Part shown: positions 281-7,600 of the stretch, piece after piece
Layout of the letters: the number at the start of each line of letters is the position of its first letter
Position numbering within the stretch: the stretch's first letter is position 1
Source of the DNA: Saccharothrix carnea
GTDB taxonomy: Bacteria > Actinomycetota > Actinomycetes > Mycobacteriales > Pseudonocardiaceae
Direction of reading: 5' to 3'
Assembly: GCF_003014735.1 (NCBI RefSeq)
Contig: NZ_PYAX01000003.1
Coordinates: forward strand, 496,001-560,000
DNA: 64,000 nt
Notes under the pieces: generated by a model
Seen by the model: only the letters and a program-made list of their open reading frames with translations
Databases searched by the model: none
What the model was told of the DNA's origin: nothing
Made by a program: the position numbers and the translations under genes

Positions 281-766
281 TCAGGCGTTCTTCGGCGCGT
301 GACCCGCCTGGTCGGTCAGCATCCGCAGGCCGCTCACCAGGCCGCCGGCGAGGTCGCCCTCCTTGAAGGACGCGACCATGCTCATCACGGCGAGCTTCGC
401 GCCGCGGTCGGCGATGCGGCGGTGGGACTCCTCGCCCGTCACCACCTCGACCCGGCGTTCACCGGGCGACACGGCGACGAGCACGGCGTGCGTCGGGCGC
501 GGGGTGCTCGCGTGCAGCTCCTCGGCCTTCGCGCGGGAGTCGGCGCCCAGCTCGCCGAGGTAGACGCTGAAGTCCAGCCCGGTGGTGCGGCTGGCCAGCG
601 TCAACGCCTCGTCCAGGCTCGCCAGCTGCACCGGCGTGAACGGCAGGCTCGGCGCGTGCGGCTCGTACATCTTCGCGGCGGACACCCGGCCGCTGTTGGT
701 GACGACCGCGCCCTCGGGGAGGGTCGACGGGTCCACCTCCACCCTCGTCAGCTCACCAGTTGCCAC
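281..766 (-). CDS. DUF5130 family protein
   Basis: This 161-residue protein matches the actinobacterial DUF5130 family, whose fold is considered related to TPM/phosphatase-type domains; I see no catalytic signature and no function is established. There is no signal peptide or membrane segment. I place the start at the GTG at 766, because the ribosome site GGGAGG (777-772) is five bases upstream of it but would overlap the alternative GTG at 772. The gene overlaps the 3' end of ctaJ by 14 bases, so the two are cotranscribed. Linkage to ctaJ, which I recall also from mycobacteria, suggests a role around the respiratory chain, but that is inference. Confidence 0.75.
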   Translation of the reverse strand: MATGELTRVEVDPSTLPEGAVVTNSGRVSAAKMYEPHAPSLPFTPVQLASLDEALTLASRTTGLDFSVYLGELGADSRAKAEELHASTPRPTHAVLVAVSPGERRVEVVTGEESHRRIADRGAKLAVMSMVASFKEGDLAGGLVSGLRMLTDQAGHAPKNA

Positions 767-998
767 GGGCACCTCCCTTGGCGGTGCGGCCCTCGGCCGG
801 CGCCGTGACGGCCTGGTGCGCGCCGCCGGGCAAGCCCGCGGGGTTCGCCGTCCACCAGACGGGGGCGTAGTTCCACTCCTGGCCCGGGCGGTACCGCTGA
901 ATGCGGGTGGCCTTCGGCCTCAGCGTCAGTAGCGTGATCACGCCGTAGATGGCCAGCGGGATCAGCGCGAAGACGAGCACGGTCTCCACGATGGTCAC
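753..998 (-). CDS. ctaJ: aa3-type cytochrome oxidase subunit CtaJ
   Basis: This 81-residue protein has one N-terminal membrane helix (about residues 3-25) followed by the conserved RYRPGQEWNYAPVWWTANP block typical of CtaJ, a small accessory subunit of the actinobacterial cytochrome aa3 oxidase that sits in the bc1-aa3 supercomplex. The start is the GTG at 998. No Shine-Dalgarno precedes it, but TACCGT (1011-1006) lies seven bases upstream, which fits a leaderless mRNA. The DUF5130 gene follows in the same transcript. A copper and oxidase-assembly protein (CopD/CtaG type) is encoded elsewhere in the window at 29940-31895. Confidence 0.8.
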   Translation of the reverse strand: MTIVETVLVFALIPLAIYGVITLLTLRPKATRIQRYRPGQEWNYAPVWWTANPAGLPGGAHQAVTAPAEGRTAKGGARGNW

Positions 999-1015: not shown

Positions 1016-1484
1016 ATCGTCCTGCTCACCCCGGGGTGAGGGCACCCGTTTCCGCACCGGTGGGGGTCCGGCGCGGTGCGCGGTGCCGTCCGGGGCGGGT
1101 TCCAACTGTGAACGCGGGTCCGGCGGGGCGGCTCCCGATCACGCGTACGGCGGTGTCCACGCCTCGGGACGCCGGGCCGACCGCGACCCCGCGTCCGCCG
1201 CCGGGATGGGCGCCGGCACATGGCATACCACGCGCTGTGATCTAGCCGACCCCCTACCTGCGACGACGTCACCCTGAGTATCCATCAATGCCGGATGCAC
1301 TAGCTCCCGTGCTCGATCGTCGCAGTGCGTACACCCGGACGGTCTTCCCCCGGACGGAGGCGAATGGCGGCCGGTTTGGCGTCTTGTCCTGGGCCCACTC
1401 GGCTTCTAGCTTTTCACCTGTACGGGTCTTGCGCATCCGATTCCGGAGACCAATTCCCGCCCGATGAGTCTCGGAGGACACGAC
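1016..1484. other. intergenic region upstream of the SVRIT-repeat gene
   Basis: About 470 bases between divergent genes hold no ORF I believe. The part from 1020 to 1230 is GC-rich with no clear signals. Nearer the downstream gene there is a weak promoter candidate, TTGTCC (1384-1389) and TAGCTT (1407-1412) separated by 17 bases, and a strong ribosome site GGAGGA at 1473-1478. The minus-strand ORF across 1269-1541 has no recognisable protein features. Confidence 0.4.
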
Positions 1485-1850
1485 ATGTACACCATGAACC
1501 TTGTTCTGGTCGCCGCCCTCACTCTTTCGTCGTACACCCAATCGGAGCAGAGCGTTACCACTGTTCAGCCTCAGACAGTGCTCGCCGAGTCGGTGCGCAT
1601 CACCTCCGATGACTCCGTTCGGATCACCGCCCAGGGCTCCGTCCGCATCACGTCCGGGCTGGACGACTCGGTCCGCATCACGGCGGCGGAGCCCGCGTCG
1701 GTCCGCATCACCGGGTCGGACACGGATTCGGTGCGCATCACGATGGCCGGTTCGGTGCGCATCACGTCCGACGCGAACGACTCGGTCCGGATCACGTCCG
1801 GTTCCGTGCGCATCACCGACGACCGCGAGGGCTACGTCCTCGCGGCGTGA
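1485..1850 (+). CDS. unrecognised protein with nine exact SVRIT repeats
   Basis: I do not recognise this 121-residue protein. Residues about 5-14 are hydrophobic (NLVLVAALTL) but the N-terminus has no Lys or Arg, so a signal peptide is only possible. From about residue 36 the pentapeptide SVRIT occurs nine times without any change, separated by short variable linkers of 3,3,5,5,5,3,5 and 2 residues that are often acidic (SDD, SGLDD, GSDTD, SDAND). The repeat period is therefore mostly 8 or 10 residues. There is no cysteine. Among the nine repeats the codons differ (TCG/TCC, GTG/GTC/GTT, CGC/CGG, ACC/ACG) but never change the amino acid, so the peptide itself is under selection. The start at 1485 is chosen because GGAGGA (1473-1478) is six bases upstream; the ATG at 1464 has no such site. 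Possible roles are a beta-rich surface or scaffold protein or a multicore peptide precursor; no modifying enzyme is nearby. Confidence 0.8.
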   Translation: MYTMNLVLVAALTLSSYTQSEQSVTTVQPQTVLAESVRITSDDSVRITAQGSVRITSGLDDSVRITAAEPASVRITGSDTDSVRITMAGSVRITSDANDSVRITSGSVRITDDREGYVLAA

Positions 1851-1866: not shown

Positions 1867-2532
1867 CTAAGCCGCGGGCTCGCCCAGGTACGGCAGCCAG
1901 AGCGGGTCGGCCTCGGTGACGCCGGCCAGCAGCCGCCAGTGCGGTCCGCGGGGCGCGTTCGGCACCACGCGCAGGCGCCAGCCCAGCTCCGAGAGGAGCT
2001 TGTCGGCCTTGCGGTGGTTGCACTTCGCGCAGCACGCCACGCAGTTGGTCCACGAGTGGGGGCCGCCGCGGCTGCGCGGGACGACGTGGTCGATCGTCTC
2101 GGCGCGCCCGCCGCAGTACGCGCAGCGGTACCGGTCGCGGTGCATCAACCCGGCCCGGGTCAGCGGCACCCGGCCGCGGTAGGGCACGCGCACGTAGTTC
2201 GCCAGCCGGATCACCGAGGGGACGACGACCTCGGACGTCGAGGAGTGGACGACGGCCCCGGCGGGGTCACCGTGCACGACCTCAGCCTTGCCGCACACGA
2301 CGAGGACCACCGCGCGGCGCAGCGGCAGCGCGGTGAGCGGTTCGAACGTGGCGTTGAGCAGCAGGACCTTGCGTCTTCCCCAAGGCAGCACCACAGGCGC
2401 CGGACCGGCTCCCTGCCCGTCGACCACGGCGTGCACGGTGCTCAGCGCGAGCTGTTTTTGACCGGACGGGACCGACGACGCGATCCCGGCGTTCACCAGG
2501 GCGCCGATCGGGGTGGGTTGTCGGTCTGGCAC
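1867..2532 (-). CDS. HNH endonuclease family protein
   Basis: This 221-residue protein belongs to a widely conserved actinobacterial HNH family. The first half carries the family block VLLLNATFEPLTALPLRRAV. The second half holds the HNH/zinc module: CAYCG, then TIDHVVPRSRGG with the catalytic His, then NCVACCAKCNHRKAD providing the second Cys pair and the final His. It is expected to be a cytoplasmic metal-dependent nuclease; its physiological substrate is not known. The GTG start at 2532 is supported by GGAGG seven bases upstream. The gene is convergent with the SVRIT gene, only 16 bases apart, and divergent from the prolyl oligopeptidase gene. Confidence 0.85.
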   Translation of the reverse strand: MPDRQPTPIGALVNAGIASSVPSGQKQLALSTVHAVVDGQGAGPAPVVLPWGRRKVLLLNATFEPLTALPLRRAVVLVVCGKAEVVHGDPAGAVVHSSTSEVVVPSVIRLANYVRVPYRGRVPLTRAGLMHRDRYRCAYCGGRAETIDHVVPRSRGGPHSWTNCVACCAKCNHRKADKLLSELGWRLRVVPNAPRGPHWRLLAGVTEADPLWLPYLGEPAA

Positions 2533-5736: not shown

Positions 5737-7071
5737 TCAGGCCGCGGTCAGGGTGGTGAGGGTGTCGGCCAGCAGCCGTGCGTCGTCGGAGCGGGCGGAG
5801 TCGGCTTCAGCCCGGTCGCGGACGACCTTGATCCGGTCGAACGTCCTGGTCGAGTTGATCCGCCCGGCCGGGGCCAGCACGGTGGACGCCAGGCGGTTCG
5901 CTTCCGCGTGCTCGCCCTGGAGGACGCGGACGCCCACCAGGGAGATGACGTCGAAGAGGTTCGACCGCTGGTAGGTGTCGCGGCGCAGGCGCAGTGCGTC
6001 GGCGAGGTGCGGTTCGGCCTTCTTCGCCGCGTCCGGCCGGTGGTCGGCCGCCGTCCGGTACGCCAGCGCCGCCATGCCCTCCAGTCCCGCCCGGTCGAAG
6101 TAGGACAGCCAGCCGGGCACGTCACCGTGGTCGGCGCGGGCGAACTGGTCCTCCGCGGCGCCGACCGCCCGGTCCACCGCCCGCAGGTCGCCCAGCGTCG
6201 CGTGTGCCCACGACTCGCAGGTCGTGAGCATCGCCGACGCCATCGGTCCCAGCCCGCTGCCCGCACCGCGTCGGGCCAGCGCGACCAGGGACAGGGCCTC
6301 CCGCGGCTTGCCCACGTGCACCATCTGGCGTGCCATCCGGGACAGCACCTCGACGCCCAGGCCGGTGTCACCCGCCCGCTTGGCGCAGTGCAACGCCAGG
6401 GTGAAGTACCGCTGCGCGGTCGACTGGAGGCCCACGTCGTGCGACATCCAGCCGGCCAACCTGGCCAGGTCCGCGGTCGAGCGGAACAGGCGGCGGCCGA
6501 TCGGGTCGGGGTAGCTGTGGTCGAGCAGGTCGGTCATCGCCTTGAGCTGACCCACCACCGCCTCGCGGTACAGGCCGCCGCCGCGCTGGGCGTCCCAGCT
6601 CCAGAAAGTCCTGGTCGCGGCCTCGATCTCGGCGATCTCGGCCGTGCCGATGCGCCCCGGGCCCAGCGCGGGCGCCGGTGTGGCGCGGTCGTCCCCGTCG
6701 AGCCACCCCGCCAGCACGCCCTCCAGCACCGCTCCCGTGGCCAGGGCGGCGGTCGCGCCGAGCACGTCCCTGCGCTTGATCATCAGATCGCTCCTCGTGA
6801 AGTCCTGCAACGTCGCGACGAGATCGCGGGTCGGGGCGAGCCCCAGCTCCGCCGCCGTGAACGGCCTGCCGACCCGTTCGGCGAACAACGCCACCAGCAG
6901 CTCCGGCACCGGGTGCCGAGGCCGTTCGCCCTCCAGCCACCGCCGCACCCGGGAGCTGTCCGGCGCCACGTTGTAGCCGCGTGCCTGCCCGAGCCGCCCC
7001 ACGGCACGCGCCAGTTCGAGCTGCGTCCACCCACCCCGCCGGAACCAGTACCGCAACGCCTCGTTGCCCAT
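5737..7071 (-). CDS. NsdA-like HTH/TPR transcriptional regulator
   Basis: This 444-residue protein begins with a helix-turn-helix region (residues about 8-60: [20 protein letters not shown], then [19 protein letters not shown]) of the type found in Streptomyces NsdA and relatives, which repress antibiotic production and sporulation. The segment [20 protein letters not shown] is also typical of that family. The rest is a helical, TPR-like domain. I choose the ATG at 7071 because GGGAGGAC is about six bases upstream; the open frame extends further (to 7221) but the extra residues look non-coding. It is divergent from the globin gene. Its targets cannot be told from sequence. Confidence 0.8.
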
Positions 7072-7213
7072 GTCCGTCCTCCCCGCGGCAGGCTGTCCGG
7101 CCCAGGATGCGGGGCCGCCGGGCGCGGTCACCACGGATCGCCGTGATGCGCCATGCGTTCGCCAACCCCGCCCGGCGTGGGTCGCACCCGGGGGACTGAG
7201 GCAGGATGGAGGG

Positions 7214-7600
7214 GTGACCACTCCTCCGGAGAACTTCTACGAAGCAGTGGGCGGGTACGAGACGTTCCACAAGATCGTCGCGCGCTTCTACGAGGAAGTG
7301 GCCAACGATCCCGTCCTGCGTCCGATGTACCCCGAAGAGGACCTCGGCCCCGCCGAGGAGCGCTTCCGGCTGTTCCTCATGCAGTACTGGGGCGGGCCGC
7401 ACACGTACTCCGACAACCGCGGTCATCCACGGTTGCGGATGCGTCACGCTCCGTTCGTCATCGGTCCCGTGGAGCGGGATGCCTGGCTGCGCTGCGCCAA
7501 GGTCGGCGTCGACTCCGTCGACCTGTCCCCTGAGCACCGCAAACAGCTCTGGGCGTACCTCGAGATGGCCGCCAACAGCATGATGAACGCCTGGGTCTGA
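7214..7600 (+). CDS. glbO: group II truncated haemoglobin (trHbO)
   Basis: This 128-residue protein is a complete group II truncated globin. The proximal haem ligand is His78 in RMRHAPF, preceded by the conserved QYWGGP motif and the [17 protein letters not shown] segment around helix B and the CD corner. Such globins bind O2 tightly and are linked to oxygen or NO chemistry near the respiratory chain. The GTG at 7214 is chosen because CAGGAT (7202-7207) lies six bases upstream, a leaderless-promoter arrangement, and the protein then has the usual family length. The longer frame starting at 7064 is rejected. Confidence 0.92.

What the first reader, a model, noticed from the sequence alone, without database searches (positions are those of the whole stretch)
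1485..1850. Unknown protein built from nine invariant SVRIT pentapeptides
Seen: nine copies of SVRIT with no amino-acid difference, separated by short variable, often acidic linkers (2, 3 or 5 residues), in a 121-residue protein with a strong ribosome site. The nine copies use different codons at the Ser, Val, Arg and Thr positions, and all differences are synonymous, while the linkers vary freely. That pattern means selection holds the peptide, not the DNA. Inference: either a beta-strand scaffold exposed at the surface or a multicore peptide precursor whose repeats are modified or cut. I know of no described family with this repeat, and no modification enzyme lies nearby.
Basis: partly seen in the sequence, partly recalled or inferred. 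Interest (0 to 1): 0.85.

Follow-up and report, generated by a model that had tools for sequence, protein, structure and literature searches.

The report
Lineage-specific pentapeptide-repeat protein under strict selection
A small bacterial protein made of many identical five-residue words separated by free linkers sits at one genomic spot in much of the Pseudonocardiaceae, with one word per protein that differs between lineages, and no description of it was found in the sources searched.

Summary
Confirmed, and larger than reported. The 121-aa ORF at 1485-1850 has nine SVRIT copies; all 76 codon differences among them are synonymous. The 54 SVRIT loci extracted share one place and gene order (53 of 53 others), with 3-29 copies. 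In 45 close pairs, motif codons differ 1191 times silently and 14 times non-silently, linkers 445 and 656. Silent sites differ as much within an array as between genomes, so DNA homogenisation is not the cause. At this locus 22 of 28 genomes of other genera of the family carry a different word: GTRVT, GVRIS, GVRIH, GVRIE, GVRVT or GIRVT. In 75 proteins: 1202 exact copies, 29 one-off variants, no foreign word. A conserved leader precedes the gene. 54 of 75 end in LAA, like the own tmRNA tag.

Best reading: a short-lived cytosolic protein, cleared by ClpXP, whose words bind each other or one partner. Turnover and binding are inferred; the structural support is weak. A peptide precursor remains possible. 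No Pfam match above cut-off, and for the window's protein no PHROG, PADLOC, PDB, phage or plasmid match.

The parts
1383..1412 (+). putative promoter: CTTGTC (1383-1388), 18 nt, TAGCTT (1407-1412)
   Evidence: conserved in 54 SVRIT loci and in an alignment of 24 loci from many genera; the generic sigma-70 scan reports no site, so the assignment is inference
1411..1433 (+). leader block TTTTCACCTGTACGGGTCTTGCG
   Evidence: TTTCACCTRTNNGGNNCTTGC nearly invariant in 24 loci; its first 15 bases have one exact site in the own genome; no conserved RNA fold, no Rfam match
1473..1478 (+). ribosome-binding site GGAGGA
   Evidence: sequence; conserved
1485..1850 (+). SVRIT-array protein, 121 aa plus stop
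1485..1589 (+). N-terminal segment (MYT...TLSSY...), 35 aa, weakly conserved
   Evidence: alignment A2
1590..1604 (+). SVRIT copy 1
1614..1628 (+). SVRIT copy 2
1638..1652 (+). SVRIT copy 3
1668..1682 (+). SVRIT copy 4
1698..1712 (+). SVRIT copy 5
1728..1742 (+). SVRIT copy 6
1752..1766 (+). SVRIT copy 7
1782..1796 (+). SVRIT copy 8
1803..1817 (+). SVRIT copy 9
1839..1847 (+). C-terminal LAA, putative ClpXP degron
   Evidence: 54 of 75 family proteins end in LAA, 0 of 212 neighbour proteins; own tmRNA tag AESNDQRAFALAA
281..772 (-). DUF5130 gene, conserved neighbour, not thought part of the function
1867..2532 (-). HNH endonuclease gene, convergent conserved neighbour, not thought part of the function

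Best explanation
It is a conditionally made, short-lived cytosolic repeat protein kept in much of one bacterial family. Shown: an array of 3-37 identical pentapeptides of the form [GS]-[VTI]-R-[IV]-[T/S/H/E], held by purifying selection (measured on SVRIT), in free linkers, behind a conserved promoter-like leader at one genomic place; the exact copies in one protein all carry the same word, and the word differs between lineages. Inferred: each word is a short beta-strand that pairs with an identical word or docks as an edge strand on one partner, so the protein is a multivalent binder (scaffold or sponge) whose strength scales with copy number. A wrong word is a defect, hence uniformity within an array, while the word can be replaced wholesale by array renewal together with its partner or itself. 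The ssrA-like LAA end, present in most members studied, would let ClpXP remove the protein quickly, so that it acts only when transcribed or when ClpXP is busy.
For: Motif codons 1191 synonymous against 14 non-synonymous differences, linkers and ends 445 against 656, in 45 close pairs, which are not independent. 1202 exact copies, 29 one-off variants, 0 foreign words in 75 proteins. Synonymous identity within SVRIT arrays 12.23 of 15 nt, between genomes 12.30. Same gene order and strands in 53 of 53 other SVRIT loci, and a different word there in 22 of 28 genomes of other genera. SVRIT is one side of a branch on the HNH tree (support 92/86), and 9 changes explain 8 labels, shuffled mean 34.3. 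Leader block conserved over many genera. LAA in 54 of 75 and in 0 of 212 neighbour proteins; 14 tmRNA tags all end in LAA, 13 of them in ALAA. Precedent: a C-terminal Ala-Ala needed for ClpXP degradation of Streptomyces sigma-AntA, conserved in 67 of 71 orthologues (PMC7142297, passages seen). Model with nine strands on nine copies.
Against: Model confidence is modest (mean pLDDT 59; a GTRVT array gave 42 and only two-residue strands), and Foldseek's best E is 0.052. Spacing between copies runs from 6 to 40 residues and is mostly 6 in GTRVT but 8-9 in SVRIT and GVRIS, which suits independent motifs better than one rigid fold. LAA is missing in 13 of 21 non-SVRIT proteins, and the HNH neighbour also ends in Ala-Ala in 53 of 53 loci (PAA or EAA), so a double-alanine end alone is not special. 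Net charge runs from -11 to +38 in the 15 proteins computed. No partner, expression data or phenotype.
Confidence: 0.4

Rival explanations
1. Precursor of a repeated peptide: each word is cut out, with or without modification, as a signal or peptide product, as in fungal dikaritins and alpha-factor precursors or Bacillus Phr pentapeptides (all recalled). Uniform words inside a precursor that differ between lineages are what repeated-core precursors show.
For: Proteins with an apparent signal peptide and SVRIT copies exist: five copies in Kribbella sp. ALI-6-A and four in a second Kribbella genome, and four or five in the three g50 genomes read, of four of eight that match. Words are uniform inside an array and differ between lineages.
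Against: By eye the canonical gene has no family-wide signal peptide, and often an ssrA-like end. No maturation enzyme among the neighbours typed by Pfam, whose core order is kept in 53 of 53 loci. In GTRVT arrays words are mostly one residue apart (98 of 120 spacings; Arg or Ala in 82 of 98), leaving little room for a specific cleavage site. A faulty copy among 20 should cost little, yet faulty copies are rare.
Confidence: 0.2
2. Multivalent decoy or hub made of disordered short linear motifs that bind one cellular protein; no self-assembly. The word tracks the binding pocket of a co-evolving partner.
For: Variable spacing and copy number; low-confidence models; words differ by one residue between neighbouring lineages, e.g. 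GTRVT and GVRVT inside one supported four-row clade.
Against: No partner known. The palindrome-like order polar / beta-branched / Arg / beta-branched / polar suits strand pairing (inference).
Confidence: 0.25
3. ClpXP brake: a substrate with a tag-like end and a low-complexity body that is hard to translocate, titrating the protease.
For: LAA end in 54 of 75 and a repetitive body.
Against: Does not explain why a particular pentapeptide is invariant; 21 of 75 lack LAA.
Confidence: 0.07
4. Cell-surface beta-scaffold or adhesin.
For: Strand-per-copy model; apparently exported SVRIT proteins in other genomes.
Against: No signal peptide seen by eye across the canonical family; ssrA-like end.
Confidence: 0.05
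5. DNA- or RNA-level repeat (binding-site array, RNA sponge) or neutral repeat expansion.
For: Tandem array with changing copy number.
Against: Codon-box switching at Ser and Arg, 14 against 1191 differences, saturated synonymous sites.
Confidence: 0.02

Closest known systems
ClpXP substrates of Streptomyces with a native C-terminal signal (sigma-AntA; also PopR and ClgR)
   Same: C-terminal Ala-Ala as in the ssrA tag, conserved between sigma-AntA orthologues (PMC7142297, passages); ClgR and PopR are natural Clp substrates (PMC9765437, passages; their end sequences are recalled)
   Different: those are transcription factors; this is a repeat array, 21 of 75 members lack LAA, and degradation is untested
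Multicore RiPP precursors and dikaritin / alpha-factor repeat precursors (recalled)
   Same: identical short words in free spacers; words differ between lineages
   Different: no maturase found among the typed neighbours, no signal peptide seen in the canonical family, one-residue spacers in most GTRVT repeats
Bacillus Phr pentapeptides (recalled)
   Same: five residues with Arg and often Thr; the apparently exported SVRIT proteins look like secreted precursors
   Different: Phr has one copy at the C-terminus of an exported protein; no receptor gene is linked here
Pentapeptide-repeat proteins (Pfam Pentapeptide family, recalled)
   Same: a five-residue unit
   Different: those are contiguous A(D/N)LXX solenoids (recalled); no such Pfam match here
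CPAP G-box / TCP10 domain, MORN1, OspA
   Same: among the top 50 Foldseek matches of the model; that these are open or single-layer beta-sheets is recalled
   Different: E 0.052 or worse; 11-17% identity for the CPAP rows in the first ten; no evidence of kinship
DUF4402 (Pfam PF14352)
   Same: weak match over residues 40-111, E 3e-4
   Different: 21.9 bits, under the 25.2 cut-off; repeat composition is the likely cause

Membership tests
Native ClpXP substrate (ssrA-like degron) | C-terminal Leu-Ala-Ala matching the host tmRNA tag | tested here: met
   window ends YVLAA; own tag AESNDQRAFALAA; 54 of 75 in the family, but only 8 of 21 non-SVRIT members
Native ClpXP substrate (ssrA-like degron) | degradation by ClpXP that depends on the tail | not testable with these tools
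   needs in vitro or in vivo proteolysis
Multicore RiPP precursor | modification enzyme encoded nearby | tested here: not met
   of 13 nearby genes of the own genome scanned (3, 10), none has a maturation-enzyme domain: M1 peptidase, a phosphatase-family gene, DUF397, DUF5130, HNH, S9 peptidase, MscS, globin, amylase, LacI, and three without a match; flanks of other genomes were compared only by homology to these
Multicore RiPP precursor | repeated cores behind a conserved leader | tested here: inconclusive
   short, weakly conserved N-terminus; Q in residues 7-16 in 58 of 75
Phr-type peptide precursor | signal peptide for export | tested here: inconclusive
   by eye none across the canonical proteins, apparent in the separate g50 and Kribbella proteins; no predictor was run
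Pentapeptide-repeat family | match to a Pfam model | tested here: not met
   no match
DUF4402 | score above Pfam gathering cut-off | tested here: not met
   21.9 against 25.2 bits
Anti-phage defence or phage protein | PADLOC, PHROG, phage or plasmid match | tested here: not met
   none for P0001; a GTRVT protein has no PADLOC match and two weak PHROG hits of unknown function, E 4e-4 and 5e-4

The most novel reading that the evidence does not exclude
A lineage-specific molecular code word: each Pseudonocardiaceae lineage keeps one pentapeptide that recognises only itself (homotypic beta pairing) or one co-evolving partner, written 3-37 times in a ClpXP-timed protein. Words do not mix and are replaced wholesale. 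Some other bacteria (four of eight g50 genomes by match, two of 38 Kribbella) export the SVRIT word of the Saccharothrix-Lentzea lineage from unrelated loci, as a message, decoy or mimic.
Probability: 0.15. Interest if true: 0.95.

Novelty: categorically new. Interest (0 to 1): 0.8.

Why it matters
A protein in which one five-residue word is held nearly invariant in every copy while the linkers drift, and in which the word itself is swapped between lineages without mixing in any protein seen, is a natural experiment on how short peptide recognition evolves. It gives a family with a fixed place, promoter-like leader and, mostly, a tag-like tail, whose partner or self-assembly can be sought directly in soil actinomycetes.

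Tried and rejected
DNA-level or antisense coding explanation: rejected by codon switching and pairwise counts. RNA leader structure: two invariant pairs only, energy -0.55; no Rfam match. Regulon sharing the leader block: one exact site in the own genome, none with one mismatch, eight with two; 106 sites at up to 3 mismatches against 69 for the reversed control; not followed further. Nucleic-acid binding by charge: net charge differs in sign among the 15 proteins computed. A regulator-like gene at 5737-7221 as receptor: no Pfam match and found in only 6 of the other loci, dropped. Family in the rest of the order: 0 of 28 genomes outside the family have an array in the fetched stretch, though several HNH hits there are not clear orthologues. 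Class-wide search with a GVRIS protein: 18 of 394 genomes matched. Of the 20 loci returned, three hold five or more motif-like units; one is a real array (same family, GTRVT, 37 copies), the others (AVRVA/AVQVA and STRLT repeats) lie outside the consensus. That query failed to reach the own SVRIT array, so this negative is weak. Phylum-wide search with the Kribbella protein: 1 of 396, the own genome. GTDB-wide DNA pattern: 43 stretches, 41 of them in records named Lentzea, Saccharothrix, Umezawaea, Actinosynnema, Goodfellowiella, Solihabitans or (one) Nocardia sp., plus Kribbella and a Bacteroidota contig with two copies, judged chance; the pattern misses AGC serines and AGG arginines, so it is a lower bound. 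A GTRVT protein has a sub-cut-off Pfam hit, SOR_N, E 0.0014. Literature, listings only: SVRIT, GTRVT and GVRIS inside words gave 10, 3 and 14 papers, none on this by title; term searches on repeats, Pseudonocardiaceae, Phr, multicore precursors and the genera listed nothing that by title or abstract start describes this family. Passages were seen in PMC9765437 and PMC7142297.

Full report
Observation. The ORF at 1485-1850 (+) codes for 121 residues with exactly nine SVRIT pentapeptides and linkers of 2, 3 or 5 residues. A GGAGGA ribosome site precedes the ATG. Ser, Val, Arg and Thr codons vary between copies; Ile is always ATC. Among 180 pairwise codon comparisons 76 differ and none changes the residue.

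Distribution. A search of 60 relatives matched 26 of 60 genomes: all 25 of the window's genus (own included) and one of another genus. A family search matched 85 of 390 genomes, weak matches included. I extracted 54 SVRIT loci: 25 from the genus of the window (g1), 24 from g8, three from g65, one each from g66 and g47, with 3 to 29 copies. A DNA pattern for three successive copies over GTDB genomes gave 43 stretches, 41 of them in records named Lentzea, Saccharothrix, Umezawaea, Actinosynnema, Goodfellowiella, Solihabitans or, once, Nocardia sp., and none in viral contigs. Shared contig lengths make g1 Saccharothrix and Actinosynnema, g8 Lentzea, g65 and g66 Umezawaea and g47 Goodfellowiella; Lentzea belongs to Pseudonocardiaceae. 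Two members look decayed: L025 has four copies and L026 three.

Place. DUF5130, HNH endonuclease, S9 peptidase and MscS genes stand in the same order and on the same strands around the array in 53 of 53 other SVRIT loci (Pfam names). HNH is also found in genomes without an array, so I take these genes as landmarks, not partners.

The same locus elsewhere. I searched the HNH protein in 28 genomes of 21 other genera of the family; 16 of the 28 had been chosen because they showed weak matches, the other 12 not. HNH was found in 28 of 28. Beside it, 22 of 28 carry an array of another word: GTRVT (8 genomes), GVRIS (8), GVRIH (2), GVRVT (2), GIRVT (1), GVRIE (1). Six of 28 have none (L183, L185, L193, L196-L198). 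Among the 12 not chosen by a prior match, 8 have an array. So the family motif is [GS]-[VTI]-R-[IV]-[TSHE]. No array was found at HNH hits in 28 genomes of other families of the order. On an HNH tree of 90 rows the SVRIT loci form one side of a branch (support 92/86), GTRVT needs four changes and GVRIS two, and the eight labels together need 9 changes against a shuffled mean of 34.3. GTRVT and GVRVT occur inside one supported four-row clade, so neighbouring lineages can differ by one residue in the repeated word.

Selection. In 75 proteins (54 SVRIT, 21 others; GVRIE not included) there are 1202 exact copies, 29 copies with one mismatch, and no copy of another lineage's word. Of 812 SVRIT copies, Ser is AGC or AGT in 88 and Arg is AGG in 48. 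Other words also use varied codons. Within SVRIT arrays two copies share 12.23 of 15 nt on average, adjacent copies 12.36, copies from different genomes 12.30: synonymous sites look saturated, so uniformity is not recent duplication or gene conversion. In 45 close pairs (not independent; identity at least 85%), motif codons show 1191 synonymous and 14 non-synonymous differences, linkers and ends 445 and 656.

Leader. The stretch TTGNCGNCTTGT ... TA ... TTTCACCTRTNNGGNNCTTGC is nearly invariant in the 24 loci aligned (9 of 54 SVRIT, 15 of 21 others), is conserved in the consensus of all 54 SVRIT loci, and lies usually 72-75 nt before the ATG. Of the 21 others, 19 have the block within two mismatches; L191 has it elsewhere in its stretch, and L194 lacks it. 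It fits a sigma-70-like promoter with a conserved block over the probable start site (inference; a consensus scan found no site). It does not fold, and its first 15 bases occur exactly once in the own genome.

Tail. 54 of 75 proteins end in LAA and three more in LAG; 0 of 212 neighbour proteins end in LAA, though HNH ends in PAA or EAA in 53 of 53. The own tmRNA tag is AESNDQRAFALAA, and 13 further tags in other genomes of the family also end in LAA. A native Ala-Ala end makes Streptomyces sigma-AntA a ClpXP substrate (PMC7142297, passages seen). Against: only 8 of 21 non-SVRIT members end in LAA.

Structure. AlphaFold2 on nine aligned sequences gives one strand on each of the nine copies (mean pLDDT 59; blocks within the array 53-73; pTM 0.43). 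Foldseek's best matches are CPAP G-box domains at E 0.052 and worse; that these are open single-layer sheets is recalled. A GTRVT array gave pLDDT 42 and only two-residue strands. This is a hint of a beta-meander, not proof. No relative has a solved structure by sequence.

Exported namesakes. In g50 (genomes of 10-13 Mb; canonical GTRVT array in the three looked at) 4 of 8 genomes match a separate protein; in the three I read (L057, L058, L060) it has an apparent signal peptide and four or five SVRIT copies. In Kribbella 2 of 38 genomes carry such a protein, five copies in L098 and four in L148; the third match covers only the signal-peptide part. They show that the word SVRIT is used in other settings.

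Mechanism. I commit to a short-lived multivalent binder whose words pair with each other or one partner (confidence 0.4). Shown: words, selection, place, leader, tail. Inferred: strand pairing, ClpXP turnover, scaffold or sponge role. Uniform words in an array with saturated silent sites suggest that a wrong word is disfavoured, not only that some right ones are needed. Rivals are listed with their tests.

Novelty. For the window's protein: no Pfam model above its cut-off (DUF4402 at E 3e-4 is under it), no NCBIfam match under E 0.4, no PHROG, PADLOC, phage, plasmid or PDB match. For GTRVT proteins: only sub-cut-off Pfam hits (two proteins), two weak PHROG hits and no PADLOC match (one protein). 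No paper on it among the searches named (open-access library, listings only).

Noticed in passing
L057, L058, L060 (g50 genomes): Separate protein with an apparent signal peptide and four or five SVRIT copies; in L058 and L060 it lies among genes for a D-Ala-D-Ala ligase and a D-Ala-D-Ala dipeptidase (typed in L058), a two-component histidine kinase (typed in L060) and a beta-lactamase-family protein (typed in L058); the neighbours in L057 differ.
   Followed up: partly
L098:7545-7922 and L150; L148: Kribbella protein with apparent signal peptide and five (L098) or four (L148) SVRIT copies; in L150 it lies between an ABC/FtsX pair and a gyrase-A-family gene.
   Followed up: partly
window 1411-1433: Leader block that looks more conserved across genera than the N-terminus of the protein, without RNA fold; its first 15 bases have no second exact site in the genome.
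   Followed up: partly
window 753-998 (-): Small 81-aa ORF with a hydrophobic N-terminus between the DUF5130 gene and the array promoter; no Pfam match, conservation not examined.
   Followed up: no
window 5737-7221 (-): 494-aa regulator-like protein without a Pfam match, found in only 6 of the other loci.
   Followed up: no
L257 (about 1461 onward): STRLT repeated 12 times with ERC spacers in a 1.2-Mb genome of another family; resembles the motif but lies outside its consensus, probably unrelated.
   Followed up: no
L086, L089: Two SVRIT loci of the window's genus whose proteins end differently from their relatives (GQAPAV; RITAS); may be decay or assembly error, left as found.
   Followed up: no
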